From Brachypterus glaber (lineage: Eukaryota; Arthropoda; Insecta; Coleoptera; Kateretidae), in assembly GCA_958510825.1 (NCBI GenBank), contig OY294046.1, positions 46,667,794 through 46,731,793 of the forward strand: a DNA stretch of 64,000 nucleotides, in the 5' to 3' direction. Positions 20,671-52,600 of the stretch are shown piece after piece; the first letter of the stretch is position 1; the number at the start of each line of letters is the position of its first letter. The notes below the pieces were generated by a model. It was not told the origin of the DNA and made no database searches. It saw only the letters and a program-made list of their open reading frames with translations. Position numbers and translations under genes: made by a program.

Positions 20671-20721
20671 GCGTAAAATAACACCGGTAATTAAAAAAAA
20701 AATACGTTTAAAAAGTTTAAA

Positions 20722-21008
20722 ACAAATAACTTAGTAAAAAAAACACCTGACTGATTAACTAAAAAGTATGAAAAGAGGATAATGTGAAATACAATTATAT
20801 AGTAACTGTGGCAGTCGGGGCCAATCCCTAATATCATAATAATAATACAAATCTTCAAACACAATTTAAATGTAAAAATGTTTTAATAATGAGAAGGTAG
20901 AATAGGACTCCGACTGCGATGGTTACTATACAATTGTATTTCACATTATTCTTGTTTCATACTTGTTAGTTAATTAGTCAGGTATTTTTTTTAATTAAAT
21001 TATTTGTT
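20722..21008. mobile_element. Foldback MITE, arms about 100 bp
   Basis: ACACCTGACTGATTAACT and GATAATGTGAAATACAAT at the left mirror AGTTAATTAGTCAGGTAT and ATTGTATTTCACATTATT at the right. GGCAGTCGGGG / CTCCGACTGC is the inner limit. Confidence 0.72.
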
Positions 21009-21431
21009 ACTGCAGGTAACCAAGACAATTTTAAAACGGTAAAAATTAAACCTAAATCAACATTTTGTAGAAAATTTAACTTCAAAGTGATGCTGAAATT
21101 TGCCCGAAAAAGGTCAAGCGATATTCATTTGTCCTATTTGCGACCCAAAAGAAAAAAAGTACTATACTCTTGTGCCTATAAGAACACGCAAACTGATTAA
21201 ATAGTGGCAATATAGAAAAAAAATCGGACTCATAATATTAGTTTATCACACACAGAAGAAGAAAGGTTGCTCTGTCTCTGCATAAAGTAACATTTTGAAG
21301 GAAAGTTGCTGATTTTATAATAAGGTATATTATTTGAGGTTATGTATAAGTAACTGAATGCCCCCCACTTTTCTTAAATCCAGTTATTTGGACCTCTCTT
21401 GCACATATAATCGCTCCCCCATTTTTATACC

Positions 21432-22217
21432 TACACTCAGAAAATTTCGTTGTATTTTTAATAATGAATGTTATTTTTTAATACATATTTTTTATTTATA
21501 TCGCCACCATTGGTATGTAATACTCTACTTGTGATATTAAATACTGCATTGTGTGTATTGTATACAAAATGTTGTCATACTAACATAGAGACCGTGCTGG
21601 TACATTTTAATCCCCACGCAACATATGTTTATTAATACTAGCATGTTATAGTAAAAATTACTATAATATTTGGTAAAGCATATCACACTTATAGTATGGT
21701 ATACTTTGATTTGTTGTTAAGTTTATTACTGATCTAGTTTAAAGTATTGTACAGTATTCAGAAAAATTAACAATCGGTAAATAATACCAAAATTTTGATT
21801 AGTAATAATATAAAGATTTCAACTACACAAAATTACATACTGAAAAAATAATAGATCCTTTATTTTACTTTTCTCTGTATTATTACTAATCAAATTTTTT
21901 AGTATTATTTACCGATTGTTATTTTACTAAATACTGTAACATACTTTAAACTAGATCAATAACACAACAACTACAACTTAAAGTATACCAAACTATAACT
22001 GTGATATAATTTACCAAATGTTACAGTATTAATGTTGCGTGGGGATCCAAATGTACCAGCACGGTCCCTATGTTAGTATGACAACATTTTGTATACAATA
22101 CACACATTGCAGTATTTAATATCACAAGTAAAGTATTAAATACCAATGGTGGCTATATAAATAAAAGATATGTATTAACAAATAACATGATTAAAAATAC
22201 AAGGAAAAAAGAGTGTA
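21432..22217. mobile_element. Nearly complete palindromic element, arms about 390 bp
   Basis: TACACTCAGAAAATTTCG at the left mirrors GAAAAAAGAGTGTA at the right. The arms are reverse complements almost to the centre near 21840, sharing AATGTTGTCATACTAACATA and ATTTACCGATTGTTA. TA next to CACTC would fit a mariner-type TA duplication. No coding frame is present. Confidence 0.8.
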
Positions 22218-23156: not shown

Positions 23157-23268
23157 AAAAGTTAAACAGTCATAATCTTAAATACAGGACTTTTTGAGGA
23201 GATTACCCCTATACTAATTACAACATATACACAGAATAAGGGGTCAACTTTCGTTTGCAGGAAATCAG

Positions 23269-23564
23269 CAGTCATCGGCGAATTTCCAGTGCTCGCATAG
23301 GCGCCGCGTCGATTCTATCGTTGACGCGAGGTTTTAAATATTTACATTTTTATTTTCTTCGAAAAACACCGATATATTTACATATTTATAGTTAATATGT
23401 ATATTCAATATTGTTGTGTGTAACAAATTAGTCGTTAAATGTTTCGATTTAGTGACCTTTATAAAAATTTCCCTTATAATTCGGCAAAATTATTCCGTAA
23501 GCCTATGTTTCTGTGTTTATTTTCAACGTTGATGAGTCATAACTGAATTTATTCCGATTAATGG
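23269..23564 (-). repeat. 295-bp interspersed repeat, - copy
   Basis: This is the inverted copy of 13778-14072. The match stops at the same places in both, so it is a defined unit. No terminal repeats were seen. Confidence 0.8.
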
Positions 23565-23567
23565 AAA

Positions 23568-23950
23568 TCAGCTACATTTTCAAAAAAAAAATTGCCTTTG
23601 TGGAAATGCAAAAAAATGGTGCATTTCGGCAAAGAACGATTATCATTTTCGGATTCAGGAATGTCCAAATAACTAGAATATACTTCATTTCCAACGAAAA
23701 TAGATTTCCATAACGTTTTTTTGCCAAAACAAAAAATATATAAAAAATCGCCATAGAAAAAAGCGGTGAGTTTCCGCAAGGAACGATTAATATTTTCGGA
23801 TTCAGGGGAGACAAAATAACTAGAATATATATAGTTTATAATTATATCAAATTTCCATAAGGCTTTTTTTGCGAAAACAATAGAATTATAAAAAATCGAC
23901 ATTGAAAAAAAATGGTTCATTTCCGCAGAAAATTATTGTCATTTTTAAAC
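23568..23950 (-). repeat. Tandem repeat, period about 145 bp, 2.5 copies
   Basis: CATTTCGGCAAAGAACGATT, TTTTCGGATTCAGG, AATAACTAGAATATA and ATTTCCATAA recur in order. The minus-strand frames here simply read through the repeats and have no known domain. Confidence 0.7.
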
Positions 23951-24665
23951 TCACTTTAGTAAGAGGGTAAGTAATTTGTAACGATATCAGATTTCCTGCA
24001 ACCGAAAGTTGGACCAGAATAAGTTTTATTCCAAAAAGTTTCTTAAGCAGTTACCACTTATTTATATAACATAATAGTAATTACGTAATTCGAATTAATT
24101 AGGGCATTAATGCCCTATTTCTACATTTTGCTGCCACTATTCAAGATTACGCGTTTTATTGCCTGCTTTAATTTAAACACTTTAAGTGTTAATTTTAAAA
24201 GTAATACATTTTTTATTACCTTTAATATTCATTAAGAGTGTTACCTTTTAGTTAATTTGTAAGATTATCTTTGATTTTGGGATATTATTTCCAATTTTCT
24301 GTGATATGTGATATGCCGAATACGAATATACTAAAAAAATCATGTTTATTTTATTTTTTGCTCTGTCTGGACACAAACAAGTTATAATCAGCTGCTTTAT
24401 TTTTATCAATGATATATTTTTTTAGTTCAAGCAATTTGCTAGACACAATAAAGAACGAAAATTAAAAAGTCGTAATAATAAACGAACCCCCTTTAATCGT
24501 ACAGAGGGTTTGTAATTTGGAATCAGCCTCTGACGATAGCAAAACGATATATACCGTCCGTGCATAGTTTGGATAAGGAACCTTGCACCAAGGGTTGTTT
24601 TAACGCGCAGCTGGACACAAAAGCAGTGGGAAATTTGAATATACAGTGGGAAATTCGGATTTGTG
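23951..24665. other. AT-rich stretch without recognised features
   Basis: No repeat ends or coding motifs were recognised. The minus-strand frame at 24422-24670 shows no known domain. Confidence 0.35.
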
Positions 24666-26640: not shown

Positions 26641-27154
26641 ATGTATCAAAAAAAAAGCTTATTTCAATAGTTTTTTACTGATATGCCATAGCAATTCTTT
26701 TTAATGCTGCTAGTTTTTTGCATATTAAATTATATTTTGTCACCTTCCAGTTCAAGATCATGAAATTTTTGAGGCCCGTTGTCTAATACAACGGTTGGAA
26801 ATTGACAATAAGCTGATTTTACATATCCTCTGTCAGAAAATTAGTAAACGTCAAACACATAACCTCAAATTGACAAACTAATTTTAAGATAATTTCAGTG
26901 CACACTAAGTTCGCATACTCGGTGTGTAATATACTATAATAGAGATTTGTTTTTACTGATATTAAAACAGAACAATTTTTTAAAGAAAAATAATAAAAAA
27001 AGTCATTTATATATTTTTTAATTAAAACAAAACTATTACGTTTACTTAGGATTCCTGTGAGCAGATACTGCAGATAATGTATTGTATATAATTTAAATCA
27101 ATATTTATTTAATTTAAAATATTATATTCTATATATAAATATTTATTATTATTA

Positions 27155-28249
27155 TACAGGGTGATTCATAAATAAGTTGCAACATTTCTAGGTCCTAAAA
27201 TATGAAAAAAAGTTGCTCCGGAAATGAGCCCTAAGGGAGTTACGACCCTCCTAAGGGTACATCTGAAAAGTAGTTTTTATTTAATATCTCTGGAACCCTA
27301 TAAACCACAGTATCGAATTTTTCAACATGCCTTAAAATTGATAAAGGTTATCATTTCATGTAATTTTTATTTGGTAACTTTAACCAGAGACTTCCAAAAG
27401 GGGGGTCGACGTCACCGTTTTGCCTAAAACTTTTTGATACTTTCTTAATAAAATATTAATGATTGATTAAAAATAAATAAATAAGGTACTCTTTATGTAA
27501 CACCGTACGGCCAACCGTTTTCGAGAAAATTGCAATTAAAGAGGCAATTTCACGTTCTGAGCATAAAAAATAAGAACTAAAAAATTCAGCAATAAAAATT
27601 TAATTACTGCTGGGCGATTTTACGTGCAAAACTATGAAAAAAAAGCTTCTAAACAACTAGGTTCGAAAACCAGTTTTAAGTATACTACGGCCGCTTAAAG
27701 GATAACACTTTTTAAGGGACTGTTGCTTCCTTAAAAGCCATTTGTAGTTATTTGTGTATGGGATTTTTTTATAGTTTTTGAGGTAGAATCGCTCTGCAGT
27801 ATTAAAATTTTTATTTGTGCATTTTTTGGTTCCTTTTTTTGAGGCTCAGAATGTGAAATTGCCTTTTTAATTGCCATTTTCTTGAAAACGGTTGGCCCTA
27901 CGGTGTTAAACAAAAAGTATTTTTTTATGTATTTTTAATTAAAGATTAATATTTTATTGAGAAAATCTACAGACAAAAAAAATTTTGGGCAAAAGAGTGG
28001 CATACCCTCCCATTTTGCACGCCCCTGTTTAAAATAACCAAATAAAAATTACATAAAATTATAACCTTTATCAATGTTAAGGCATGTGCAAAAATTCGTT
28101 ACTGGGTTTTATAGGGTTTCAGAGATATTAAATAACAACTACTTTTCAGATGCATCCTTAGGAGGGACGTAGCTCCCTTAGGGCTTATTTCCGGACCAAC
28201 CTTTATATCGCCCCATAAAATTTTGTAACTATTTCTGAATCACCCTGTA
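27155..28249. mobile_element. TACAGGGTG foldback element, full length
   Basis: The ends TACAGGGTGATTCA and TGAATCACCCTGTA frame two arms of about 500 bp that are reverse complements throughout. Paired landmarks are CTAAGGGAGTTACGACC / GGACGTAGCTCCCTTAG and GGCCAACCGTTTTCGAG / CTTGAAAACGGTTGGCC. The central loop (about 27600-27830) is short. No transposase frame is visible. Relatives occur at 26.3, 35.7, 39.5, 43.9 and 62.5 kb. Confidence 0.75.
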
Positions 28250-28581
28250 TTTTTTTAGTAGAATATTTTTTTAAAAAACAGTAAATAATTTCTTGGCATG
28301 CGGCTTACGTGGGTAAATTTGTAAAGTCAAATTCACAGCTATTTAAACAAACGTTATCAGAAAATAGCACATAAATCCTATTTTTTTGCATAATATTATT
28401 TAGTTGAATGTTTCAGAAAATCAAGTTCTGTAAGGGGAAGAGCCCTATTGTTTTTGAAATTAATCCCCCCAAAAATAAAAAAAGTTATGGGGGGTTAAAC
28501 ATAAAGAAATCGAAAAAAGATGAAAGAAAATTCCGATTTATGTAACTTTTTCATAGGTAATCTTATATATATATCTATATA

Positions 28582-29306
28582 TACAGTGCGGTCCAAAAGT
28601 CACCCCCCCCTCTTAACTTTTGAACGAGTTGAGATATCGATTTCAAATTTATAACTCTTAAATAAGACAACTTAAACTATCTTTAAGCATATATTTGATA
28701 CTTTTATCTCTTAAAATGTGAGCAGGGGGGCATGGGGGGAATTTTTTTTAAATGGAAAGGGGGGTCGTGTGATACATCATTTTAAAGCCTTTAAAATTCT
28801 CTATATAACCATACATTTTTAAAAATTTTAAACATGTTTTTTAAGGTTTTGATTTTTCAGTTTTTTTGTGATAAAAAAATAAATTTTTAAGTTTTTTTTT
28901 GTTAATATTTATTTATGTCAACTAAAATTAGTTTAAAAGTATAATTTACTTTTTTTTATTATGAAATTAGGCATTTTTGAAAAATTGTTTGGATTTTTTA
29001 GAGAAATTTTAACAAAAATACCCATATTCAACACTATTTTAAACCCAAGAAAAAAAAGTTTAAAAAAAAATATATATACAGTTAAATGGAGAATTTCATA
29101 AGCTTTAAAATGATGTATCACACAACCCACCATTTAAAAAAATGTCGCCCCATGCCCCCCTGCCCACATTTTAAGAGCTAAAAGTGTAAAATATATGCTT
29201 AAAGATAGTTTAAGTTGTCTTATTTAAGAGTTCTAAATTTGAAGTTGATATATAAACTCGTTCAAAAGTTAAGAGGGGGGGGGGGTGACTTTTGGACCGC
29301 TCTGTA
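28582..29306. mobile_element. GCGGTCCAAAAGTCACC foldback element, copy 2
   Basis: The ends TACAGTGCGGTCCAAAAGTC and GACTTTTGGACCGCTCTGTA match copy 1 at 11.8 kb, as do the arms. C and G runs of 8-12 stand at the mirror positions next to the ends. Confidence 0.82.
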
Positions 29307-29409
29307 TATATATACAGAAGGATATTTTCGGTTTAGTAAATAATAAGCTAATTAAAAGTCCTTGTTTTGTATTTGGTGCAATAATTCCATATTGTTTTTA
29401 CGGAAAATT

Positions 29410-29785
29410 CTTTGTATACCTGCTCGTTAACTTTCCTCAAATTTATAGCCAATGATTTAAATATTGTGCGGTCCAATAAATAACCTTTTTTACCCATATT
29501 TCAGTGAACTGCTTCCATATAGAATTTTCCTCGTCACAGTGTTAACCGGCACAGCTGGTTTTAAAATTATTTTGAAATTTTCTTCAAAAATACTAAATTC
29601 TTTGTATACTTGCTCGTTAACTTTCCTCAAATTTATAGCCAATGATTTAAATATTGCGCGGTCCAATAAATAACCTTTTTTACCCATATTTCAGTGAACT
29701 GCTTCCATATAGAATTTTCCTCGTCACAGTGTTAACCGGCACAGCTGGTTTTAAAATTATTTTGAAATTTTCTTCAAAAATACTA
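29410..29785 (+). repeat. Almost exact tandem duplication, 188-bp unit
   Basis: The block from TTTGTATACCTGCTCG to TTCAAAAATACTA appears twice with about two differences, showing a recent duplication. The overlapping frames on both strands are by-products. Confidence 0.88.
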
Positions 29786-29997
29786 TAGTCTGCTTTAACA
29801 AGCAAGAAAGTAAATTAAAAATAGCACAGTGAATATTTTCAAAATCGATTAGAATATTGGATGTGCGAATATACTGAGTAGTTTATTTTATAAAACATGA
29901 CTATATTCTATACACAAACCTATACAATTCAAACCTGTTGTAAAAATTTTTATTGTGCGATTTTTAATTTACTCTTTAGCTTGATGAAACAGACCAT
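29785..29997 (+). mobile_element. TGGTCTGTTTCATCAAGCAAG MITE, copy 1
   Basis: TAGTCTGCTTTAACAAGCAAG starts it and TTGATGAAACAGACCATA ends it. GTAAATTAAAAATAGCACAG pairs with TGTGCGATTTTTAATTTAC. Four copies lie in the window, and this one starts where the 188-bp duplication stops. Confidence 0.8.
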
Positions 29998-30016
29998 AGC
30001 AAATCTACGGCCCATT

Positions 30017-30214
30017 TTTGGTCTGTTTTTGTCAAGCAAGATAGTAAATTAAAAATCTCACAGTAAATATTTTTACAACAGGTTTGAATAGTATATGTTT
30101 GTGTATAGAATATAGTTACGTTTTATAAAATAAACTATCCAATATTGGAATCTGTTTTGAAAATATTTACTGTGCAATTTTTAATTTACTATCTTGCTTG
30201 AAAAAACAGACCAT
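30017..30214 (-). mobile_element. TGGTCTGTTT MITE, copy 2 (inverted)
   Basis: It is the same element in the opposite direction (middle GTATATGTTTGTGTATAGAA), ending CTTGAAAAAACAGACCAT. Copies 1 and 2 stand only 20 bases apart. Confidence 0.8.
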
Positions 30215-30539
30215 AATTCACAAACTAATTTGACAGTACTTTTTATAGGCGCTATGATAATATTGTTGGCTAATAACAATAACAATTATTTAATTTTTTT
30301 TTATTTGTCTTTAAATTCTTTTAAAACTTCTTTAAATAACCTTAACTTTTGATATTATTGGTATCAAAAATTTAGTTACCTGCAACAAAAATACATAGTA
30401 GAAAAAAATCCTTAGTACCCGGGATTTCTTCGATTTAAAAATAGGTGATTGGCTGAAAAATGTACCCGATTTGTGACTGGATTGATTTAATGACATAACA
30501 ATAATAAAGTGTGAACTTTTCAGGAAAACTTACTTTTGT

Positions 30540-35699: not shown

Positions 35700-36169
35700 A
35701 ATCTAGAATCACCCAGTAGTATTGACATTTTTATTGATGCATTTTTCAGTTCACTTCAAACTTTAATTTTCTTGAGAACGGTTGGCACTACGGTGTTAAA
35801 TAAAGAGAACCTTTTTTATGTATTTTTAACTGCAGAATAGTATTTTATTGAGAAAATATCAAAAAATAATACAGATAAAAAAGTCTGGGGAAAAAAATTT
35901 ACATCACCCCCCATTTTGCACGTCCCTGGTTAAAATTATCAAATAATAATAACATAAAATGTCAATGTTAAGGCGTGTGTAAAAATTCGTTATTGTAGTT
36001 TATAGGGTTCCAGAGATATTAAATAAAAACTACTTTTTAAATGTACCCTTAGAAGGGTAGCTCCCTTAGGGCTCATTTTCGGACCAACCTTTATCAGTAC
36101 TTTTTTCATATTTTTTAAATGTAGAATCACACCTTAATATTTTCGAACTTATTTCCGAATAACCCTGTA
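35700..36169. mobile_element. Right arm of a TACAGGGTG-type foldback element
   Basis: The stretch matches the right half of the full element at 27155-28249: the ACGGTGTTAAATA segment, CACCCCCCATTTTGCACG, the TATTAAATAAAAACTAC segment, and the terminal AACCCTGTA. The left half is absent or too diverged to see. Confidence 0.65.
36162..36169. repeat. Target-site duplication ACCCTGTA (left copy)
   Basis: This perfect 8-bp copy is matched at 36721-36728, right outside the foldback termini. It overlaps the terminal CCCTGTA of the neighbouring older element. Confidence 0.8.
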
Positions 36170-36720
36170 GGCAGACTAACATCTCTACTCTAAATTTCTC
36201 TACTCCCTAACATCCCTACTCCATAACATCCCTACTCCACAACAACTCTACTCCGTAACATCTCTACTCCATAACATCTCTACTCCGTAACAACTCTACT
36301 CCACACTATAGACACTCGATTAGCCACTTGTCTTAACTCAAAAGAATATTTGTCATGCTAAGTCACTGTCAAAAATGAATTCAGTTTTTTAATTACTTAC
36401 CTATTAGTGCATGTTAAGAGTACGCGGTCATTGTTGCTTTTAGAATAATTCATTTATGATTGTTCTAGATTTATATTTAAAGATAAACGTTTTCTAGGAA
36501 AAAAATAAAATAATCTAGAAGAAGAAGATTCTTTGTTCTTTGAACTGCTCATTTATTATTAAGTGGCTAATAAAGTGCATATAGTGTGGAGTAGAGTTGT
36601 TACGGAGTAGAGATGTTATGGAGTAGATATGTTACGGAGTAGAGTTGTTGTGGAGTAGGGATGTTATGGAGTAGGGCTGTTAGGGAGTAGAGAAATTTAT
36701 AGTAGAGATTTTAGTCTGCC
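36170..36720. mobile_element. Foldback element with arms of 16-bp tandem units; 8-bp TSD
   Basis: The ends are GGCAGACTAACATC and its near-complement TTTTAGTCTGCC. Each arm is an array of about eight copies of a 16-bp unit, TAACATCTCTACTCCA or close variants. The order of variant units in the left arm is mirrored in the right arm. The arms flank a central part of about 280 bp (36300-36580) with no long frame. ACCCTGTA stands directly on both sides (36162-36169 and 36721-36728). The left copy is the very end of a TACAGGGTG-type element, so this element jumped into the tip of another one. The design recalls Drosophila FB elements, but the duplication here is 8 bp, not 9. Confidence 0.85.
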
Positions 36721-36796
36721 ACCCTGTATTGGGAATCATTAGCACCGTCTATCTTGCAAGTTTGGTTTGTTGTTGTGGTTATTGAAATAAAACATT

Positions 36797-37144: not shown

Positions 37145-37335
37145 AGTTATAAAAGCATGGTGCCATCTATTGATGTGGTCACTACTTACTATTCCCTATT
37201 CTCAGAGAACCTAACACAAAAAAGGGTACGTTTGCCACCGTTCACCCCTAGTTCGCAGATAAGGAACCGTAATTCTGTTTCATTTAAATTAGTATTTAAA
37301 CCAAAAATAAAGCAAGATGCTTTGCTTTTTATAAA
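37145..37335 (+). promoter_or_regulatory. Putative FLVCR 5' leader with upstream frame
   Basis: This 190-base stretch between a retroelement 3' tail and the FLVCR ATG is less repetitive and less AT-rich than its surroundings. An ATG at 37157 opens a 60-codon frame that ends in TGA overlapping the FLVCR start (ATGA). No clear TATA box or initiator is visible. If transcribed, the frame would be an upstream ORF. It has no recognisable domain. Confidence 0.35.
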
Positions 37336-37605
37336 ATGACATCTTCCAAAAATGGTGTAGGAGCCTTCACGTTAAAAACCGATCGGGTGGAAATTAAAGC
37401 TTATAAGCGAAGATGGATAATCATGCTTATGTTTGTTTGGTATTCGTGCATAAGTTCAATTCAGTGGATAGAATATTCAAGTATTACAAATTTGGCAATG
37501 AAATATTATGACGTTAGTTCTCAAGCAGTGGATTGGACATCCATTATTTACATGGCCATCTATCCACTGTTAGTGGTACCAGCCTCTTTTCTCATGGATA
37601 AAATG
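37336..37605 (+). CDS. FLVCR: FLVCR exon 1 (residues 1-90)
   Basis: This exon encodes a short cytosolic N-terminus, helix 1 (about residues 28-46) and helix 2 (about 68-88). It holds the family block QWIEYSS and the VSSQAVDW segment. The donor is ATG|GTAAGT in phase 0. The reading frame runs on past the donor for 18 codons, but that part has no family similarity and is intron. Confidence 0.92.
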
Positions 37606-40600
37606 GTAAGTTGTACTTTTAGGTTTACAGACATATTACAAAAGCGGACAAAAATATAGTACAATTACATTTAACCAGATTATATTTTTTTACGTATTTT
37701 TGTGGGGCTTTTTCACGTCGAAATCTGAAAAACAATTTATTAAAAAAAACTTCTAATAGACAGAAGAAATAAGAAAATCCTAAATTTTCGCATTTTCCAG
37801 ACACATCAGAACTTGCAGACATGTAAATAATTTTATAAAATATATTAATTAAAATTGTAAATACAATATTAATATCTCATTTTGCTTAAAAAGTTTAGCC
37901 AAGCAGGCAATTTTTGTTCAGCTAAATCGGACCGAAACCATAAGACCGGTACACCGTGGTTTTCGAGATTTTTAAATTTGTCCATCACCTTTTATTGTTT
38001 TTGGGAGTGCCCTTATAATCGAAATGTCGAGAACTATGACATATCGAAAAAGCCAAATCTGACTAAAACCACTTTTACATAAGAAATTAGCGAGGTACTT
38101 TGGGGGTAACCGAACTTGTTCATAGTCACATCCAAACGTAAGAAAAATATAGTCCGGTTACACTGGTCGACATAAAAAAACATATCTCTCAATTTTGTCT
38201 GATATATCATAATTTTTGATTAACTTTTTGATGCCGAACACGAATTTGACCTCCATTTTTTGCCATCAGGTCGGGGTTCTGAGATAAATGCTACTGATTA
38301 AAAAAAATTAAATACCATTATTTTCAGCTCTAAACTTTTTTTTCTAGGAAAATATATCCCTAAAATATGGAGTTTTTCACGCAGATTCTAAAAGTGTTTG
38401 TTTTTTTTTAGAATACCATTATTTTCAGCTCTAAACTTTTTTTCTAGGAAAATATATCCCTAAAATATGGAGTTTTTCACGCAGATTCTAAAAATGTTTG
38501 TTTTTTTTTTTAGATATCTTTAACGGTTTTCAAATACAGTGCAAAAAACTGAAAAAAATTAAATATTTTTTAAAAGCCCAACTCTGTTAATGCTAAACCT
38601 TTTAAATTGTTTTAAAGCTCAATTTATTTGGCATTTAATACTTGTTTTTAAAGTTCGAAAACCACGATTTTTTGGTGATTTTTACCAAAAGTAAAGTAAT
38701 ATAGACCTACCTATTTCAACATATTAAAAAAAAACAGCATTGTCGATAAAAGGTGAAACCGAAAGGAAAACTAAGGGAGCTTGCTCTCTTACCCCCCAGA
38801 ATATTTAGGTCTTCGAGAAAGATCTTCTAAAAATCGAAAACAAAAAGGTCATATTTCGTGATATTATTTATTATTTAGATGGCTAAGCCCCCTCATATTT
38901 ACAACTTGTAACAAATTACAGCTTTACAACAATTTTAGGTGTTTTTTACTTTTGTGTTTTTTTATAAAAGTAACAAAAACTCTTTGTCTTTGCCGATAAA
39001 ATTTAAAGAATAATTGATTTTAAATTAGTTAGTTGGGTACTTCTTACTGTGACTTTTAAGGGGTTGTTCTGATTTTTGATTTCAAAAAATATATTTTTTT
39101 TTTGCTTTTTTATACTTCTCCTAAAATATTTTGACGAAAGTCTTGTTTAAAAAGTTATCCCTTACCCTGCCGAGACTAAACTAATGATAATTTTCGATTT
39201 AATTTTGTTTTTTTTTATATTTGCTTGCTATGCCTAAAAAAAAGAAAAAAAGAATAAGAAATAAACCGATTTTTTTTTTGTTTTTGCCCGAGTTTCAGGA
39301 GAACTGTATTATACTGAATTAAATTTGCATATTTGTTTGCATACATAGAAAGTCTATAAAAGTATTTTGGATTAATATTGCCTTAAAGAAAAAATAAAGA
39401 AGTCACAATTGTGACACCCTGGAGGGTAAGGGTTATACCAAAGACTAATTAGTCTGTGGTTATACATTTATATACTTTAAAAAATATACATAAAAAAATA
39501 ATATAATTATAAAATTTTAAAGCTTGATTCTACATCATAAAATATGACAAAAAGTTTCTATAAACCTATGTCTAAAAATACGTCGTAAGGGCGATATGCC
39601 CCTTTGAAAGTGGCTAAAAACTTCGGTTTTTATTTAATAACCCTTTGAGATACAGCAAGAAGTTTTGGCATGTGAACTATCTTAATAAGACGCATCCTCG
39701 TATGTTATTTTTATGTAGTTATTTTAACCAGGGACGTGCGAAACGGGGATGCCTTATCCGTTTTTTGTCCCAAACTTTTTTATGTGTATCTTTTTTTGAT
39801 TTTTTGTAAAAGATATGTAGATATATATATAAGTTAAGTAAAAATACATAAAAAGTGTCATATAGTGTAACACTGTAGGAGCAACCGTTTTCAAAAAAAA
39901 ATGCAATGGAGCCCTCTACAACTAGAATTATGAAACAAAAGACGTCTACCCTATCTCTATCTCATTTGTGTTACACTTTTCAGCCACCCAAATAAATACT
40001 GTATTTGTTTTTCATACAACAAATACAGTATTTATTTGGTTGGCCGGAAAGTGTAGCACTGAGCGCCACGAACGAACATAGCTAATGTGAATCTGTAGAA
40101 TAAGACAATTCTACTAAAATTTAGATGGCGCCAGTAATTTCTTTAATAAAAATAAAACTTCGCCCGGCCAAGTAAATATTGTATTTGTTCAACAAAGAAC
40201 AAATACAGAATTTGTTTGGTTGGGTATAAGTGGTATTAGATTTATTTGTTTTGGTAAAGAATACTCTTTTGCTAAGTTTTATTGTAGAATCGCCCTGCAG
40301 AATTAGAATTTTATTGGTGCTTTATTTGTATACTTTAATATAAAAAAACTTTAAACGAGTGTTTTTCTCAAAATGTCATTTTTCAAAATAGTCCCAGCTA
40401 TTAAAAAAAAAACTATTTAACATATTGACTTAAATCTTTCGGTATTTTGTCGAAAATCATGTTGGCTAGTGTAAATGTTTTTTCAAAGGCTTGTAATTTA
40501 TTTTTCATTCCCCATTTTTTACCAGTTTTTGGCATTTTTTGATAAATGGCATTTTTCGTTTTTTTTTTCACTAAAATACGCGTGGAATTTTTGTTTTTTT

Positions 40601-43600
40601 GGAATTTTGACCTATGTCAACACTAGCTAATTAAAGTACCTAATTTTTAAAAAGACTGTTTTTGATTTTTGAGTTTCGGACCGTTGGGGGCCGAGCTATC
40701 GCTGGAACCGTTTGCCATGTTATTTTTGAGGTAACTTTAGCGCTTGCTGCACACAAAAAGAATTTTTGTGAACTTTAAGAGTTGCCTAATACTTTGTAAA
40801 AGTTGTAAAAATAATACACGTCTTCTGAAAAAAAAATCCTCAAAAATCAGAACAACCCCTTAAAAACATAATTATTTTTTCTATTTTTAAAATCATTTAG
40901 TACCTAATTTTTTTGATATGTTAAATGTTAAAATAAAAGCTTTTTTCTTAATTACTTTGTTAAAAATCACCAAAAAAGCGTGTTTTTTTAAAAATAAGGG
41001 TGTGGTTTTTCCCTTATATCTTGGGAAAGAAATTTTTGAGTTTAAATCTGTTTTCACATAATTATTGAGTATTAAAAACCAAATAAATTGAGCTATTAAA
41101 CAATTAAAAGCTTTAGTATTAACTGAGTAATGGACATTTGAAAAAATTTTTTCCAGTTTTTTGCACTTTTTTTTTGAAAACCGTTAAAGCTGTCTAACAA
41201 ATTAAACATTTTTAAAATCTGCGTAAAAAACTACATATTTTAAATGTATGATGTTACTAGAAACAATTTGTTTAGGGCTGAAAATAATATTTAATTTTTT
41301 TTTTCAAAAAATCAGTAGCATTTATTTCAGAACCTTGACCTGACGGCAACAAATGGAGGTCAAAATCGTGTTCAGCATCATATTTTTTTTAGGGATTAAG
41401 AGCAACAGTATTAATAGGATGTATAGGAACACTAGTAGGCTCTGCAATAAAGTTGTTTTCTATTGGCAGAGACTTATTTTACGTTGTTTTAATTGGTCAA
41501 ACTACCTGTGCAGTTTTTCAGTTGTTCATAGCTTGTTTGCCAACAAAACTTGCTGCGGTTTGGTTCAAATCTAATGAAGTAAGTTCTTAAATACTAATAT
41601 TTCGTTGTCGAGTAAACTCGGCGCAGAATCTATCTATATAAAATATGTATAAAAATGGATGATTAGTGGTGTAATGACTTTCAGCGATATTTTTATCACC
41701 CATTGTGCTTTTGATAATTATTGACATTCAGGTTAAATTGATAGCATTATTAATTTGAGCCATTTCGCCTCAATGATTATTTATATCGATAAAAAATCTA
41801 AAACAGAAAATAAAATTAAAATGTTCTTATCAGGCACACCTATTTTTAGATGCGTTGGTAGGGTATTGCGTTTAAAATAATGCTTATCTGCTATATCTTC
41901 TTTACCTAAAAAAATATTATTAGTCAATACCTTACCAAAGTTTAAAAATTTTGCCTAAATAAAGAATTTTTAATAAAATTCTTGATAAATCGTTAAAATA
42001 ATTAAAAAAGAACGAAAAACTGAATAAAAGTTTACTTTTGACGTTTCGGGATCTAATTTGATCCCGTTTTCAAAGAAAATTAATAGTTTTTGAAAGAATT
42101 TGTGCAATATTTGCTTTTATCATTCAAAATATGACAAATGTCAAAATATGTAATTTCGAGGTAATTGAAACAAAGACACCCGTAACAATAAAAAGGTGTA
42201 GAGATTTGAAAACGTGTAGAGAAGTTAATTTGGAAAAAACTTTTTTATTGAAAAGAGGTCAAAGTTAAGTTACCGCGTAATACTTCATCATTAAGTATTG
42301 GTGTCCAAATATTAGATAAAGATGAAGAGCATTCGCTAATACGGTTATCTCTGCATAATTTTATGAAAATTGATTCTTTTAGCTTTCGTAGTTTTGTATT
42401 ATCAAATAAAAAATGGTGACAATTATTAAATGAGTGATCAACTAAGAACCTGGCACACATATAGGGGGGTTCCTGGGCCTCAGTTAAACTGCGTCAAATT
42501 TTGATATTTTGTAATTTCGGGGGTAAACATCAAATTAGGAAAATTGCAGCCAAATTAAATGACCAGTTTCGGAGAAAAACGCTTTTAAAAATCTAATTTT
42601 ATGACAGATTTTTTGACGTATATTAAGGTTATTTTTTACTTACGTAAATATTAACTTAATTAGCCGTTTTAAGTTTATTATACTCTATTAATTAATGAAC
42701 AGGCAAGATAAATATTACATAAAAGGCTTTATTATCATTTACTTACATGTGTTTCTATAAAAATTTTAAAACTTTGTGAAACTTCCACATGCTGGCATTT
42801 TCCACGTGTTTGCTAATTATCCACATATTTTCTGTTAGATTTTTGCTTGATTATGTTGAAACATGGTTTGGTACATCGACAAATATTTTATAATTATATA
42901 TTTTAGACTTTCTTGATATATTTTTTCAAAACAATATCTGATGGTTGACAAATCTCTCATGATATTTACATATTATTGAGATTGCCTAGCAACAACTTAA
43001 TTCATTAGTGAACCCTTTATAGTAATATTTATTAAAAGTTGTTGCTAGGCAATCTCAATAATATATTTTACCTATGAAAATATGATGACAGATTTGTCAA
43101 GCCTCAGACGTATTTTTGGAAAAATATATCAAGAAAATCTAAAATATATAATTATAAAATATTTGTCAATGTACCAAACCATGTTTCAACATAATCAAGC
43201 AAAAATCTAACAGAAAATATGCAGATAATTAGCAAACACGTGGAAAATGCCAGCATGTGGAAGTTTTACATAGTTTTAAAATTTTTATAGACACACATGT
43301 AAGTAAATGATAATAAAGCCTTTTATGTAATATTTATCTTGCCTGTTCTTTAATTAATACAGTATAATAAACTTAAAACGGCTAATTAAGTTAATATTTA
43401 CGTAAGTAAAAAATAACCTTAATATACGTCAAAAAAATTGTCATAAAATTAGATTTTTAAAAGCGTTTTTCTCCGAAACGGGCTATTTAATTTGGCTGCA
43501 ATTTTCCTAATTTAATGTTTACCCCCGAAATTACAAAATATCAAAATTTCAGGCAGTTTGACTGAGGCCCAGGAACCCCCCTATATGTGTGCCAGGTTCT

Positions 43601-46600
43601 TTTGAAGAAAATATTTTTCTTTTTTGACAGTTAATTTGGTGATCTGTCAGACGGACAGATAAATTATAGATAAATTATAGATTCTATTCAGGTCAAATTG
43701 ACTGTCATTTTAAGTCTTGCAAATAATTATAAGAAAATAATTTTAAGATGTAAAATTTTGTATAAAATTATAATAAAAGTAGATTCTTTTTACAATGTGC
43801 TATTAAAATCAAATTTTACATCACATGAGTTAGTGATACCAAAAATTATATTTTTTAAATATACAGGGTGTCTTAGAACTGGCGCGCTTCCTTATACAGA
43901 TTGATTCTCAATAAAAAAATATGAAAAAAAGTTCCTGTAAACATATGTCCAAAAACGACTCGTAAGGGAGCTACGCCCCTTCATAAGGGGTTCTAAAAAT
44001 TCGATTTTTATTTAATAACCCTTTGTGATACAGCAACAGTGTTTTTCAAGTGATATTTTCTTATTAACGCCTATTAGCCAATGGCATTTGCATGTAGTTA
44101 CTTCAACCAGGGACGACTAAAATGGGGGGTCTTATCACTTTTTTGCCCCAAACTTTTTGCTGCTTTACTTTTTTGTGCGCTTATTACTAAAATAGTATTC
44201 CTTAGGTAAAAATACATAAAAAAGATACTCTTGTTGTAATGGCGTAGGATTAACCATTTTCAAGAAAAATACAATTAAACGAAAAATTAAAGGTTTTAAA
44301 AACCAAAAATTAAACACTAAAATATTTAAAACCAAGATTTTAGTGATGTAGAGTTACTGTAAATTAAAAACCAAGTTTTTATACATGTAGTTCCAAAAAT
44401 CGATTCTAAGGGAATTATTGTCTCCAAAAATACACCATTTTTAAAGGGCCATGGTACCCTTAATAACGATTTTTGGACCTACATGTATAGTAACTTTTTT
44501 CTTAGCTTTTGATGTAGAATCTTCCTGTCTTTTTTGGTTTTTAACATTTTAATGTTTGTTTTTTTTTCTCGTAACTTGTAATTTTACCTTTAATTGTATT
44601 TTTCTCGAAAACGCTTAATCCTACGGTATTAGATCAAGTACCTTTTTATGTGTTTTTATCTGGCTATAACTATTTTAATAATAAACCTACAAAAAACATA
44701 AGCAGAAAAAAGTTTGGGGTAAAAAAGTGATAAGACCCCCATTTCGGGCGTTCCTGGTTAAAGTAACTACATGCAAATACGGCATTTTAACATCTCTATT
44801 CCACATTTCTCTATTCCAAACATCTCTATTCCACATTTCTCTATTCCATAACATCTCTATTCCACACTACTCTACTCTGTACTACGTACTTGCTTAATAT
44901 GATTTTTCCTTAGCGTAACAAAGTAGTTGCATTTACAATACTTATACAGGGTTTTTAAATTATAGAGCGCAAACACAAATTTTAACGTTGTTGTTCCGCT
45001 AAGGAAAAATTATGTTTAGATATTAGGCAAGTACGTAGTTCAGAGTAGAGTAGTGTGGAATAGAGATGTTATGGAATAGAGAAATGTGGAATAGAGATGT
45101 TTGGAATAGAGAAATGTGGAATAGAGATGTTATAATGCCGCAAATACCATTGGCTAATAGGCCTTAATAAGAAAAGATCATTTGCAAAACCTTGTCGCTT
45201 TAACACAAAGGATTCCTGAGCTATTAAATAAAAATCTAATTTTTAGAACCCCTTTTGAAGGGTCGTAACTTTTTTTCATATTTTTTTATTTAGAATCACT
45301 CGGTAAAAGGAAGTGCGTCAGTTCTAAGACACCCTGTACTTAATTATGACCGAATATTATTTTAACTCTCCGAAAAAAAAATTGTTACATCGCGATGCAT
45401 CGTTTACTATAAAACTTTTATTTAGCACTGCGTTATATTGCTTCATTTTAACACAAAAAAATGTAGGTTAGTGCTTTAGTTTCTTTTTTTAAGAATTTTC
45501 TGGATCATTTTACCATTTGTTTCTAAATTGTCAAAATGTTTTGATTGATAATAAATTTGAAACACAAGATGGTCAAACTTAAACCAAATTTTATTATCCT
45601 AACTATAACATACTAGTATGGCTTGAATAGTGTTGTTTAAATGACATCATAGTTGGTTGGTAAAGTAGGACAGTATTATACCAAAATCTTTTTCGAGGTT
45701 AAAAAGTTGATTGAGTTGTTTATTTTGCGATATTTGAAACTCAAAACCAAAAATGAGGTCCACAAGGAAAAATTAGGCTTGTCCTAACTTTGCAAGAACA
45801 TTTTTGCATAAAGCTTATAAATTACTTACTTTTATTTAACTTATTTATTATAGGTACCTACATTATCCACGAATGATATGTGACGATTATTTAAAATTAT
45901 TTCAGTTCAATCCGTTCTTGCACAAAAAAGTGCCTGGCAAAACAATTTTACCACAGATTTCATAATATATATGAGATCTGTGAATCTTATAAATATTTTT
46001 AACATCTGGCTTATCCTAACCTATTTACCTAACCTATTTTTCCTCTTCTTGTTCGAAAAAATATGATTTGGCGTCGGACAGAAATATAATAGAAAAGGAT
46101 AGAAATACTTACTATGTGAGCAAACCACCTAGGGTACGTGATTACTACGAATAGTTAATGTGACGTCATTGTTTGTTGTAGTTAAGTAATAAAATGTGTG
46201 TAGTATGCTATTCTTCATACTAGTATGTTACAGTTACGATAATAAAATTTGGTTTTATATAGGGAATTAAATTTATACTGCCAACCATAAATCAAGAAAC
46301 AAATGAGCTTTAACTTAGATAGATTCTGCGCGGAGTTTATAGACTAAAAAAAAACTGTTTGTTTTTAATGCCACTGAAAATACATTTGACTTACTATTTT
46401 AGTTTTAACGAAGGCCTCCTTTTAACGAGGAATCAGAACTCAGTTATGACAGTTTTTCTGCCTTGGATTTCAAGGAACAATGGTCTGTTTCATCAAGCAA
46501 GATAGTAAATTAAAAATTGCACAGTAAATATTTTCAAAACAGACTCGAATATTGGATGTGCGAATATACTGCGTAGTTTGTTTTATAAAACATAACTATA

Positions 46601-49600
46601 TTCTATACACAAACATATACTATTCGAACCTGTTGTAAAAATATTTACTGTGCGGTTTTTAATTTACTATCTTGCTTGAAAAAACAGACCATAGTACCTA
46701 AGGTTTAGTTACTCAAGTTACTACTAAACCTGTTGCCGCCAAATGCTTGCTTGATTTGGTTTGATTTTAAGGGCTTTAAATAATCACAATTTTTATATAA
46801 TAAAAAAGTGAAAATTCAGAAAATGAGTAGAAAAATAAACTATTTTTTTTTTATAAAATATTAATTTTTTAGGTTTCTTCAGCATGTTCGCTTGGTGTTT
46901 TTGGTTCACAACTGGGTTCTGCTATCGGGTTCTTTTTGCCATCTTATATTGTAAAAGACAGTGATAACCCAGAACTTATAGGAGCCAGTCTTAGGGTACT
47001 GTGCTATGTTATAACAATAGCTATGATACCAATTTCAGGAATAGTAATATTTTGTAAGTAAATTATTAAACTTTAACAATCATGTTCATCAAGGTTGTGT
47101 TTCCAAAACTGGTTAAGGCAACCTTAGCTAGTTTTCTCACTTTCCTAATATTTCTATTTATGAGCAGTAGGTATCTCATTCTGTGTCTGCATAGTAGAAA
47201 GAAACCTATGTATTACATACGTTTCTTATAAAACTTATATTAGCTCTCTTTCCCAATTACACAGGACCACAATTTTTTTCTGTCGTTTGACCTGGATCAG
47301 AAATGGTTTTTTTTTATGTGTATTTTTGGTCGCTGAACACGAATCCGTCGCCTGTTTTGGCCCATCACGTCAGATTTTTTTTTAACAGGAAAAAACAATT
47401 ATTTTTTTTCTTTCGAAAATATTATTTCGCTAATATTTTCCAAAATATTAATCTAAAGGTATTATATGCCTATATTTTTGGAATTAGCGCCTCGAGATCT
47501 ATCGACATGAATTTAAAAAAATCCATACGATGACCGAAAATTAACGATTTTGACCTCGACTTTGACCATATCTCAGTTTTTTTTTAAATCATGTCGATAG
47601 ATCTCGAAGCGCTGATTCCAAAATATAGGAATATAATACCTTTAGATTAATATTTTGGAAAATATGAGCGAAATAAAATTTTCAAAAAAAAAAAATTTGG
47701 TTTTTCGTATTTCAAAAAACTCCGACATAATGGGCCAAAACTGTGTTATCTTTAAGTATTACTTAAGCAATTAAAGCACTCATGTTTTAGTATGTGACCC
47801 ACTATTTGTTCCCTTCTTCTAACTTACCCTTACCCAATTCTCTCCAACCCGCTCTCGTTTGTATCTGACCATTTTATCTTTAACATTATCCAATCTAATT
47901 TCCTAGCTAATATTTCAGTTTAAAGAAAAATATGTTTTTTGTTTCAGTTTTTCCTACAAGGCCGCCGCTACCACCAAGCAACACCCAACTAGATCTGATG
48001 AAGTTGAACCAAAAATTCTCATCAGCCATATTCTTTAATACAATCAAACAATTATTCTGCCATACACCATTTATGATCCACATGGTTGCTTTTGGAATAA
48101 ATGTGTCTGTTTATTGTACAGTCTGTACCATGTTGAATCAGTATGTCCTGCATTACTTTCCGGTAAGATAAATAAAATTTTTTAAAAAGTCAAAAATTAA
48201 TAAAAATTACCCATAGTCCAGTCAAATAACGAGAAATTCCTATGTTAAATTGCAATAAATAAACACGGACTGATATTTTAAAGGGTACTAGTGGATAGGG
48301 AGGATTGGTGTAGTGGACTACCGCGTCGTACTTGACGAGTTTACTACCCAAAATAGTTCGATTCTCACCGGCGCCGATTTGTCTTTTTCAGTTAATTAAT
48401 AATTGAAATTTGGCGAAGGCGTAACTGAAGCGGACACTCCCTATAAATTGGTTCGAAAGTCAATTAAAGCTGGTGGTTCCCTCTACTACTAGCCCACACA
48501 AGTCCTGGACTTAGGGGATGCTTAATTAAGTAGAATAGTACGAGGTTAAACAAAAATGTTATGTAAAAAAAATGTAGTACCCTCCTGGTTTTTCACCTGG
48601 TGATTTGCGTAAGGGATGTCCGCTATCTTGAATTTTAGGGGCGAGTGCTGTTATCTCGCTAAATATACATCTTGCTATAAAAATGCATATAACCAATTTT
48701 GTTAACGAAAAACATTTCATTTGGACTTTTTGTTTGGATCATTTTTTTAATATATTAATAACAATCGAGTTATAAATATTCAAAAATATCCATGTTGGGG
48801 GTGAAATTGTTTTTTTTTTCGATTTTTCAGCCAAATTATTCATCGAAGGATAAAAGTGGTTATAAGCAAACTTTTAGCTCTTAAAATTCTCATATATAAG
48901 TTTTATATATTATGCATTTTCATAAGTATTTTTTTTACGGTTACAGTGCGCACTGAAATTGGAATTGCGCTCTCTGTAACCGTACCAAAGCATCTATAAA
49001 AATGTATAACATACAAAACTTATAGAGAATTTCAAGAGCTACAAGTTTGGTCATTACCACATTTATCGTCAGATGATGGCTATTTTTGAATTTACTCGAT
49101 TTTTATTAAAAAATGGAAAAATGATCGAAACAAAAATTTTTGGAAGTTTCCTCCTTAATAAATATGGTTATATGCATTTTTATCGTAAGATGCATATTAA
49201 GCAACTCACCCCTAAAATTCAAGATAGCGGACACCCCTTAGGCACCCGGCCAAAAAATATACTGCAAAAAATAAATTTGGAATTATACATTATTCTGCTC
49301 GTAAATGTGATTCAAATCAAATACATTTACCTAAAATTTACTAGATTTTAAATGTAATTTTATAATTTTTTTACATGTAATTTTACAATTTTACATGTAA
49401 TGTTAAAATTTTATTTGCACATTACATGTAAAATTACATGTAAAATCTAGTAAATTTTACAGAGTTCACTGTAAAAAATAAATATGTAAGTTTACATGCA
49501 GAATCATACATGTAATATTTATATAAAATTGTAAAATTACGATTTTGTATGAATATTACATATAAATTACATGTAATATTCATATAAAATTGTAAAATTG

Positions 49601-52600
49601 CATATTAAATCTCGTAACTTTTACTTGTACTTGCACGGCAGCACATTACATATGATTCCATCTATTTTTTATAGTGTAAAAGGAGTGTTCTGTCACCATC
49701 CACTACTGCCCTTTATAATACATTTATTGCAATTTACATTTATTATTTGACTGGCCCACCAAGATAAAAACATATTGACTGGGCTCTCTCGCGTTTAATG
49801 TTGCCAGATATTAGACATTAGGTCAATATTCCAATTTTCAAATTTTCTTTATACTTTTATATACTCTCAGCTCCGCTTCGGTCCACAAAATACGACCTCA
49901 CACAGAAAAATTCACTTACCTCTACTAGAAGCTCAAATAACTATTAATTATAATTAAATGTGTTTTCTTTATATTTTTTAATGTATTATTTAATTTTTTT
50001 AATGATATAAAAAAATGGTTAAAAGATTAGGAAAAGATATACTTTTAATTATATATTTTATCATTTTTAGGGTGCTCAGGAGGATGCAGGTATGATGGGC
50101 TTCATCATGATAGTAGCTGGAATGGTTGGAACCATTATATTTGGAATAGTTTTGGATAAAACGCACAGATTTAAGTAAAATAATTTGAATTTATAAAGAA
50201 ATTGCACTGCTCTACTACAGAATTTTCACAATCAATGAGAAAATCCCTACCAAAATGTCATATAGCTGCTATTTCAGATGTTTTCACCAATTTGTACTCT
50301 CTCGATACAGTTATACTTATTTTTGATAAGTATTTAAAATTTTCAACAGTCTGTGTGAAAGCCACCATACCAATATATGCTCACTGATGATCGCAAAAAA
50401 GCGTGAAATAGCAGCTATATGACATTTTGGTAGGGATTTTCTCATTGATTGTGAAAATTCTGTAGTAGAGCAGTGCAATTTCTTTATAGATTTTAATAGT
50501 TTGCCGTCTATAAGGCACTAAACTTTATTTTCATTTAAAAATTGACTTGCCGTGTTGGTGCTAGGTGATGACTTTGAGACAAATTTTTTGTCCGCCTGTG
50601 TATCTAGATATAGATAATTCTTATCAGATTACAGGTCTGCCAACATCTAATGTGTAGTACTGTTGTGCAAACATTAGATGGCGCCACCAATTTGTACGCT
50701 CTCGATACAGTTATACTTATTTTTGATAAGTATTTAAAATTTTCAACAGTGTGTGCGAAAGCCACCATACCAATATATGCTCAATGATGATCGCAAAAAA
50801 GCGTGAAATAGCAGCTATATGACATTTTGGTAGGGATTTTCTCATTGATTGCGAAAATTCTGTAGTAGAGCAGTGCAGTTTCTTTATAGATTTTAATAGT
50901 TTGCCGTCTATAAGGCACTAAACTTTATTTTCATTTATAATTTGAATTATTCTACTATTTCTTCATTCATAATTAAGTGGCTACCTAAAAAAAATTAAAA
51001 TACAGGAAACCATATTTGATATACATAATTTTCTAGGCCAGTTTGTAACAAAATTTTTGTCCAGTTACACAAAAATTACAGAGTACACTGAAAAACAAAA
51101 TTTTCAATAGTTGCTACAGCTATCTCAAAAAATGGGCAAGCCTGAAACTATGACCTGCTCTAAAATAAAAAAGCAATAGAAAGAGCTGAACAATTTTTCC
51201 AGTTGGAAGTTAACCCTCTATGGCCCGAATTAATTCTACAGGTAGAAAAAAATATTAAGCCTGGTACTCCTCTACAAAAAATAGGGTTATGTTACCTAAA
51301 CGTAACATTGGGCAATAAATCACGAAATTTATAAAAAATATTGCTGAAAAAACAAAGCTTTCTACGTTATCTTAGAAGTAATAATTTATTAAAATGCTTA
51401 AATTATAATTATAAAACTATTTTTTAATAAATATAAAAACATGTTAACAATTAATATGTGTCCATACTAAAGAATATTTTAAAAATTCTAGTCTACACTG
51501 CCCAATGTATCTTTAAAGTAACATACCTTAAGGCCTATTCAGTAGCTTGCATAAGAACATAAAACATAAGAATACGATGCCGTGATTGGCTTACAAGATA
51601 CATGGCCGCACCTCAAGCCAATCACGGCATCGCATTCTTATGTATTACTTTCTTATGCGAAACTGTGGATATGCCCTTGTTTGCACAATTATTTTTGTTC
51701 AGGATATATTCAGGATCATAATATTTTCTTAAATTAATCTTTAATAATGACTTAACCATCAAGTATTTTTTATTTTACCACAATAACTGTCAAAACCTTT
51801 CAAAAATATTTTTAAACATCAACATTTTTTAAATTAGTCAAAGTGTTGACAGTATTACATTAAAATACAATTTAAAAAATATAAATATTAGACTCATCAA
51901 AAAATGTATTAGAACTGTAAACCCAAAACCCAATACATTTGCCTTAATTAAATCCAATGGAGATTTCTCCCGTTAGATTAGACAGGGACAAAAGTTCTAC
52001 CCAAAAAGGATAGAATACATACATACACTCCCACTTCCACCCAACCAAACAAATTCTGTATTTGTTCTTTGTTGAACAAATACAATATTTACTTGGCCGG
52101 GCGAAAAGTGTAACTATATTAAAGAAGTTACTGGCGCCATCTAAATTTTAGTAGAATTATCTTATTCCACAGATTCACATTAGCTGTGTTCGTTCGTACC
52201 GCTCACTGCTACACTTTCCGGCCAACCAAATAAATACTGTATTTCTTGTATGAAAAACAAATACAGTATTTATTTGGTTGGCTGGAAAGTGTAGCACAAA
52301 TGAGATAGAGATAGGGTAGACGTCTTTTGTTTCATAATTCTAGTTGTAGAGATCTCCATTGGGTATATTACCTAAACGTATCAAGGGCATAGAGAAGAAA
52401 AGAGGACTAAAAGTACAGCCTGCGCAAGATTATTTTGTGACAGAACGTGGCAGCGAAATAACGTAACGCAATATATCTGACCTTGTGCAGTACGCATCTC
52501 TATCAGCTGTGAAATGTTGTCGGTCGTAAAACAATTCGTCACCGCAGTATTCATTTGTCTTATCTCCAAAAATCCCCCAGTAAAAATCTTAAAATGTCCG

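What the first reader, a model, noticed from the sequence alone, without database searches (positions are those of the whole stretch)
36170..36720. New foldback family with arms made of a 16-bp tandem unit
Both arms are arrays of about eight TAACATCTCTACTCCA units, and the variants occur in mirrored order. A perfect 8-bp duplication (ACCCTGTA) proves transposition as a unit. Drosophila FB elements have array arms, but with 9-bp duplications. Mirrored variants suggest the arms are copied from one another as a whole. I do not recognise this family.
Basis: partly seen in the sequence, partly recalled or inferred. Interest (0 to 1): 0.82.

Follow-up and report, generated by a model that had tools for sequence, protein, structure and literature searches.

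The report
Jumping-gene fragments with repeat-array arms
The hairpin-shaped DNA is one of many copies of a short, gene-less jumping element, most likely a Mutator-type "foldback", a kind already described in mosquitoes and nematodes; a few copies look as if one arm was rebuilt by copying the other arm and running past its end into the neighbouring DNA.

Summary
E1 (36170-36720, 551 bp) has two arms, each a 7-bp tip plus eight 15/16-bp units in mirrored order, and a perfect 8-bp duplication. The window holds a second, related element, E2 (44781-45139), with its own 8-bp duplication. The source genome (648 Mb) has 2,404 exact E1 tips. In a regional sample of 58 loci, 89 of 99 exact tips were paired and 39 of 55 called pairs had perfect 8-bp duplications. 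E1 transposes as a unit and is common.

The kind is known: Mutator/foldback elements such as Muta1/Muta5 (Aedes) and Tm1 (Meloidogyne) have this layout. In this genome 7 of 14 examined MULE transposase loci are flanked by 15-bp-unit arrays, against 0 of 16 loci of three other transposase models. E1's own transposase was not found, so superfamily membership is inferred.

Whole-arm copying is partly supported. In a 29-copy consensus the outer 141 bp of the arms are identical, but none of 113 later changes is shared between the arms of one copy. Three of 58 loci carry an inverted arm copy that runs past the tip into host DNA, as expected if an arm was repaired from the opposite one.

The parts
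36162..36169 (+). E1 left target-site duplication ACCCTGTA
   Evidence: single copy in paralogous host repeats
36170..36176 (+). E1 left tip motif GGCAGAC
36177..36303 (+). E1 left array, 8 units (16,15,16x6 bp) of TAACATCTCTACTCCA
36304..36329 (+). E1 left arm, inner non-array part (holds the 4 fixed left/right differences at arm positions 142-149)
36330..36560 (.). E1 loop, 231 bp, no open frame of 90 aa or more
36561..36586 (-). E1 right arm, inner non-array part
36587..36713 (-). E1 right array, 8 units in mirrored order
36714..36720 (-). E1 right tip motif GGCAGAC
36721..36728 (+). E1 right target-site duplication ACCCTGTA
44773..44780 (+). E2 left target-site duplication GCAAATAC
44781..44898 (+). 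E2 left arm: tip GGCATTT and 6 units (16,15,15,15,16,15 bp)
44899..45021 (.). E2 loop
45022..45139 (-). E2 right arm: tip GGCATTA and 6 mirrored units
45140..45147 (+). E2 right target-site duplication GCAAATAC
43862..45338 (.). palindromic host repeat (ends TACAGGGTGTC) into which E2 inserted; its left arm holds the matching site once (one base different), near 44084-44091

Best explanation
E1 and E2 are non-autonomous, MITE-sized members of two related families of cut-and-paste DNA transposons of the Mutator/foldback (Muta1/Tm1) type. Shown: precise GGC-ended tips, arms of 15/16-bp units, exact 8-bp target duplications, single-copy target sites in paralogous repeats, and thousands of E1 tips genome-wide. 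Inferred: a MULE transposase supplied in trans binds the tips and the unit arrays, excises the element and inserts it with an 8-bp stagger. Inferred from the sequence pattern: arms are occasionally rebuilt after a break by copying the opposite, inverted arm. When copying runs past the tip, the element takes in an inverted piece of its own flank.
For: Transposition: 1,223 + 1,181 exact tips; reversed-pattern control 0; 15 of 15 perfect duplications exactly 8 bp, none extending to 9. Recent spread: mean 1.6% divergence from consensus in 29 copies. MULE type: published Muta1 (145-bp TIR, 9 copies of a 12-bp repeat with 3-4-bp spacers, 8/9-bp TSD) and Muta5 (151-bp TIR, 9 copies of a 15-bp repeat, 8-bp terminal motif) (passages), and Tm1 (7-bp end motifs, 13-15-bp repeats, MITE-like members; passages). 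In this genome 7 of 14 examined MULE loci have 15-bp-unit arrays, against 0 of 12 Merlin, 0 of 3 PF20700, 0 of 1 hAT and 0 of 18 background tiles. All seven also have a 29-31-bp period in Tandem Repeats Finder, as does E2 (30 bp); E1 shows the 16+15 pairing only in its first two units. MULE copies L090 and L092 have 8-bp duplications with a GGC left tip. Arm copying: 3 of 58 loci have an inverted flank abutting an inner 14/14 tip. Away from the tip, 12 of 191 control flank 30-mers have an inverted copy nearby, but all 12 lie in L014, L029, L030, a nested array (L044) or masked N (L047). In L014 the inner arm shares two private changes (positions 39, 45) with the left arm that the retained outer tip lacks.
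Against: No transposase with E1 tips or units was found: none in 12 of 12 Merlin loci (about 1.5 kb each side), 14 of 18 MULE matches, 5 of 13 PF20700 matches (3 loci) or 1 of 44 hAT matches, and none detected in a 2.3-kb relative with E1-like tips. Duplications in E1 are strictly 8 bp, whereas Muta1 and Tm1 vary between 8 and 10. Of three MULE copies L090-L092 one (L091) lacks a duplication, L092 could also be read as 9 bp, and their right tip reads CGCTCC, not GGC. The 7 array-bearing MULE loci come from about three families by unit sequence, so they are not 7 independent cases; 7 other MULE loci show no such array. Terminal GG plus 8-bp duplications also fits Merlin. E1's array shows no overall 31-bp period.
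Confidence: 0.74

Rival explanations
1. E1/E2 are non-autonomous Merlin (IS1595-type) elements.
For: Merlin ends carry conserved 5'-GG and 8/9-bp duplications, and tandem repeats have been seen in Merlins (passages). The genome holds 12 Merlin-domain loci. One of them (L074) has 120-bp arrays in both arms and an 8-bp duplication CAAAATTT, though its two tips match at only 15/20 and the right end holds extra sequence.
Against: None of the 12 Merlin loci has E1 units or tips, and none has a 14-17-bp array. The two other Merlins with recognisable ends (L071, L073) start GGGGCCGGTG at one end and GGTTTCGGTG or GGTTACGGTG at the other.
Confidence: 0.13
2. E1/E2 belong to another 8-bp superfamily (hAT, P, or an undescribed one).
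For: hAT and P also make 8-bp duplications (recalled); hAT-domain matches are present here (44); the P search did not complete.
Against: The one hAT copy fetched has no E1 tips or units in 4 kb. E1 tips start GGC, not the CAG-type ends of hAT (recalled). The duplications show no fixed T2/A7.
Confidence: 0.13
3. The inverted-flank copies are ordinary local palindromes or assembly artefacts, unrelated to arm repair; the arms merely descend from one ancestral inverted duplication. (Not exclusive of the others. Odds lowered from 0.30 to 0.25 after one search showed where the control hits lie.)
For: The window is rich in palindromes. 0 of 113 arm changes are shared in ordinary copies. Raw reads were not available.
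Against: In all three loci the inverted flank begins exactly at an inner 14/14 tip. L014 and L030 return to the outer tip with the direct 8-bp duplication intact. L014's inner arm carries left-arm private changes. Of 191 control flank 30-mers, inverted copies occur only in L014, L029, L030, a nested array and masked N, so unrelated inverted copies near these elements are rare.
Confidence: 0.25

Closest known systems
Muta1 / Muta5, Mutator-like elements of Aedes aegypti (PMC5225508, passages)
   Same: TIR about 145-151 bp = short terminal motif + 9 copies of a 12-15-bp repeat (period about 15-16); 8- or 9-bp duplications; hundreds of non-autonomous derivatives, many with varied interiors
   Different: their unit and tip sequences were not seen, so not compared; E1 strictly 8 bp; E1's transposase not found
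Tm1 Mutator/foldback family, Meloidogyne (PMC3169594, passages)
   Same: 7-bp end motif, array arms of 13-15-bp units, MITE-like members, arms about 93% identical
   Different: asymmetric end motifs; mostly 9-bp duplications; different unit
MULE loci L088, L090-L094 and L097 of the same genome
   Same: arrays of 15-bp units with a 29-31-bp composite around a MULE transposase domain; 8-bp duplications in L090 and L092; GGC left tip in L090-L092
   Different: different unit sequence (GCGC-bearing); right tip CGCTCC in L090-L092; L097 array seen on one side only
Drosophila FB (recalled; also named in PMC4079207)
   Same: foldback with array arms
   Different: 9-bp duplications (the finding's text and recall)
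Sea-urchin TU elements (recalled; foldbacks of the sea urchin are only cited in PMC4079207, passages)
   Same: recalled: outer arms of about 15-bp tandem units, 8-bp duplications, modular interiors
   Different: not tested; no sequence seen
Galileo (P superfamily; PMC3573991, passages)
   Same: long internally repetitive arms; tandem repeats proposed as extra transposase-binding sites
   Different: 7-bp duplications; about 210-bp units in arms of 0.3-1.2 kb

Membership tests
Mutator/foldback (MULE) | MULE DDE transposase in the element or its autonomous partner | tested here: inconclusive
   E1/E2 are gene-less; no E1-tipped partner in 14 of 18 MULE matches examined
Mutator/foldback (MULE) | 8-10-bp target duplication | tested here: met
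   8 bp exactly; 39 of 55 called pairs perfect; 15 of 15 perfect ones not extending to 9
Mutator/foldback (MULE) | arms = short terminal motif + array of 12-16-bp units | tested here: met
   same layout beside 7 of 14 examined MULE genes in this genome
Mutator/foldback (MULE) | non-autonomous derivatives with shared ends, different interiors | tested here: met
   8/8-unit and 12-19-unit subfamilies, E2 family, other interiors
Merlin | 5'-GG ends and 8/9-bp duplications | tested here: met
Merlin | IS1595-type transposase with the same ends | tested here: not met
   12 of 12 Merlin-domain loci found by the Pfam model lack E1 tips and units within about 1.5 kb
hAT | hAT transposase with the same ends | tested here: inconclusive
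   1 of 44 matches examined, negative
P / Galileo | P-type transposase with the same ends | not tested
   search did not complete
Drosophila FB | 9-bp duplication | tested here: not met
   8 bp

The most novel reading that the evidence does not exclude
Foldback arms stay identical because broken arms are repaired from the opposite arm. The same repair, when it overshoots the tip, draws the element's own flanking DNA inside its ends in inverted orientation. L014 and L030 would be frozen intermediates of Pack-MULE-type capture of host DNA, each still next to its donor flank and still bounded by intact-looking tips and the original 8-bp duplication.
Probability: 0.45. Interest if true: 0.62.

Novelty: new member of a known kind. 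Interest (0 to 1): 0.42.

Why it matters
It adds a young, abundant (2,404 exact tips) foldback family to the animal Mutator/foldback group, in a genome that also holds MULE genes with the same arm plan. How MULEs acquire host sequence is called not yet understood in PMC3310237 (section 4.2), and gap filling or fork switching is proposed in PMC8277862 (abstract and passages). Copies caught with an inverted flank between an inner and an outer tip make that question testable copy by copy in one genome.

Tried and rejected
Pattern scans of viral contigs and genome contigs with the array: 0 hits each. Transposase in the window: of 31 open frames of at least 90 aa, 27 distinct ones were scanned; the only matches at 1e-3 or better were reverse transcriptase (two frames) and an MFS match below its curated cut-off. 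The other four were left out: three are reading frames of the ATAA microsatellite, one is 15559-15840. First choice of superfamily was Merlin (GG ends, 8 bp); it was demoted when none of 12 Merlin loci had E1 tips or units and MULE loci proved to have 15-bp arrays. A hAT family was tested as partner and rejected on one copy. The 2.3-kb relative L063/L098 was tested for transposase remnants with 69 local open frames: best E 0.21, nothing convincing. Ongoing arm-to-arm conversion in ordinary copies: no support (0 of 113). Shared arm changes in L029 and L031 are not counted as evidence, because L031 is of the long-array subfamily and L029's first flank bases do not match. L030's arms share no private change (1 change each), so the private-change test supports copying in L014 only.

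Rows dropped before counts: the loci L001-L007 (duplicates) and the short versions L010, L024 and L027 were left out. Two of the 100 listed places (C1:16816599, C1:17520290) were never fetched. The 29 copies were chosen by length and include three without a called duplication (L015, L059, L062). The sample is the first 17.7 Mb of one contig, not random.

Full report
What is there. E1 spans 36170-36720 with ACCCTGTA on both sides. Each arm is GGCAGAC, then units of 16, 15 and six times 16 bp, then about 26 bp of non-array sequence. The mirrored unit order gives 4 mismatches; 2 of 40,320 orders do as well. As one DNA strand it folds at -182.1 kcal/mol, against a mean of -45.1 for 100 shuffles. 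In both elements the second unit is a 15-bp ATTTCTC variant, so the ends probably share ancestry and do not merely share a minisatellite (inference).

Target sites. E2 sits in the right arm of a large palindromic repeat, and the left arm keeps the site once, as GCAAATGC, one base different. E1 sits at the end of a copy of a repeat whose paralogues carry ACCCTGTA once. Both duplications were therefore made by insertion. Neighbouring open frames at 37300-37656 and 54881-55204 match FLVCR2 and FLVCR1 transporters, so this is an animal gene region.

Genome-wide. The source genome is 648,179,424 bp. The E1 tip (14 bases) occurs 1,223 + 1,181 times, the reversed control 0; the E2 tip 86 + 101 times, control 0. 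I fetched the loci of 98 of the first 100 listed E1 tips (C1, 0.77-17.69 Mb): 58 loci holding 99 exact tips. 55 pairs were called, some forced without a duplication; 39 have a perfect 8-bp duplication, 43 at most one mismatch, 12 more than one; 89 exact tips are in pairs and 10 are single. In one search, 15 of 15 perfect duplications stop at 8 bp. The duplications of 45 elements are AT-rich (20.6% G+C, flanks 28.4%) with weak symmetry and no fixed motif. Among 26 copies of 545-555 bp with a called duplication, 21 have 8/8 units by my counter and 5 have 7/8 or 8/7. A long-array subfamily has 14/13, 12/19 and 14/15 units, so arms can change length separately.

What kind. Muta1 of Aedes has 145-bp TIRs of a 10-bp terminal motif plus 9 copies of a 12-bp repeat with 3-4-bp spacers and 8- or 9-bp duplications; Muta5 has 151-bp TIRs with 9 copies of a 15-bp repeat and an 8-bp terminal motif (passages of PMC5225508). 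Tm1 has 7-bp end motifs and arrays of 13-15-bp units (passages of PMC3169594). That is E1's plan. In this genome PF10551 (MULE) gives 18 matches, PF12762 (Merlin) 12, PF05699 (hAT) 44 and PF20700 13; the tool calls such counts lower bounds. Of the loci examined, arrays of period 14-17 occur at 7 of 14 MULE, 0 of 12 Merlin, 0 of 3 PF20700 (covering 5 of its 13 matches), 0 of 1 hAT, and 0 of 18 background tiles. The seven come from about three families (inference from unit sequences). L090-L092 are 96-99% identical and about 1.6 kb long; two of three have 8-bp duplications (in L092 a 9-bp reading is also possible), and the left tip starts GGC. None carries E1's unit or tip, so E1's own transposase remains unfound and MULE membership is inferred from architecture. 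One Merlin, L074, has 120-bp arrays and an 8-bp duplication, which keeps Merlin as a rival.

How the arms behave. In 29 copies of 547-553 bp (E1 plus 28, chosen by length) the consensus arms are identical over the outer 141 bp and differ at four positions between 142 and 149. Mean divergence from consensus is 1.6%. At positions where the consensus arms agree there are 48 later changes in left and 65 in right arms; none is shared within a copy, and within-copy arm distance (0.0484) is not below between-copy left-right distance (0.0472). So the arms were equalised in the ancestor, and ordinary copies have since drifted independently. Three loci are different. In L014 (106-724) the right side holds an inverted copy of the left arm which runs 56 bp into the left flank, and then the last 56 bp of the original right arm and the direct duplication AATTTTTT. 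The copied arm shares two private changes with the left arm that the retained tip lacks. L030 copies about 223 bp matching the left flank (with a gap) and returns 13-15 bp from the tip with AATCAATA intact; its arms have one change each and share none. L031 copies about 46 bp and does not return. A systematic test found exactly these three among 58 loci in which an inverted flank abuts an inner 14/14 tip. In the control, 12 of 191 flank 30-mers taken 60-120 bp from a tip had an inverted copy within 2.5 kb; all 12 lie in L014 (1), L029 (4), L030 (4), the nested element L044 (1) or masked N of L047 (2). L029 thus also carries an inverted flank copy, but it does not start at the tip; L029 and L048 are not counted. 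The simplest reading is repair of a broken arm with the opposite arm as template, overshooting the tip, then joining to the remaining end. PMC8277862 (abstract and passages) proposes gap filling and fork switching for host-DNA capture by such elements; PMC3310237 (sections 3.1 and 4.2) reports MULEs with extra TIRs and says the acquisition mechanism is not understood. In the listings I saw no report of inverted flank abutting an inner tip; only some of those papers were opened, so this says little about print.

Verdict. The feature is real and mobile, a new family of a known kind. The part worth following is the small set of copies with captured inverted flank.

Noticed in passing
window 275-707, 5224-5475, 20721-22207, 27137-29312, 42444-43601, 47354-47741, 48606-49623 and others: The window is crowded with long palindromes of other repeat families, two of them over 1 kb (65-92% identical arms); inverted duplication may be common in this genome.
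   Followed up: partly
G000 C19:7733815-7737602 (L074, L081, L082): A decayed Merlin element with arms made of 120-bp tandem units and an 8-bp duplication CAAAATTT.
   Followed up: partly
G000 L083 (C2:5027000-5031000) and equal-scoring places: 26 of 44 hAT matches share the same score, coordinates in the profile and open-frame length (317 aa): perhaps a very young hAT burst. One copy was read.
   Followed up: partly
L044:149-491: An E1-type element inserted inside another E1-type array (its duplication GAGATGTT is array sequence).
   Followed up: no
window 29784-30215 and 46473-46699; L051 from 2010: L051 has the E1 tip but an interior that by eye resembles these window palindromes (AGTAAATTAAAAAT), suggesting modular exchange of interiors behind one tip.
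   Followed up: no
L063:1996 to L098 (2,304 bp): A longer relative with E1-like tips, about 2 units in one arm and about 7 in the other, no detectable transposase and no matching duplication.
   Followed up: partly
L029:4031-4216 and 5750-5951: About 185 bp of left flank repeated inverted on the right side, not starting exactly at the tip.
   Followed up: partly
window 37300-37656 and 54881-55204: FLVCR-like transporter open frames; E1 lies about 580 bp upstream of the first, E2 lies between the two.
   Followed up: partly
window 62630-63077: A 112-copy ATAA microsatellite, 99% uniform.
   Followed up: no
window 23241-24015: A third GG-ended inverted pair with an 8-bp duplication AGAATAAG and 11/14 tip match.
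   Followed up: no
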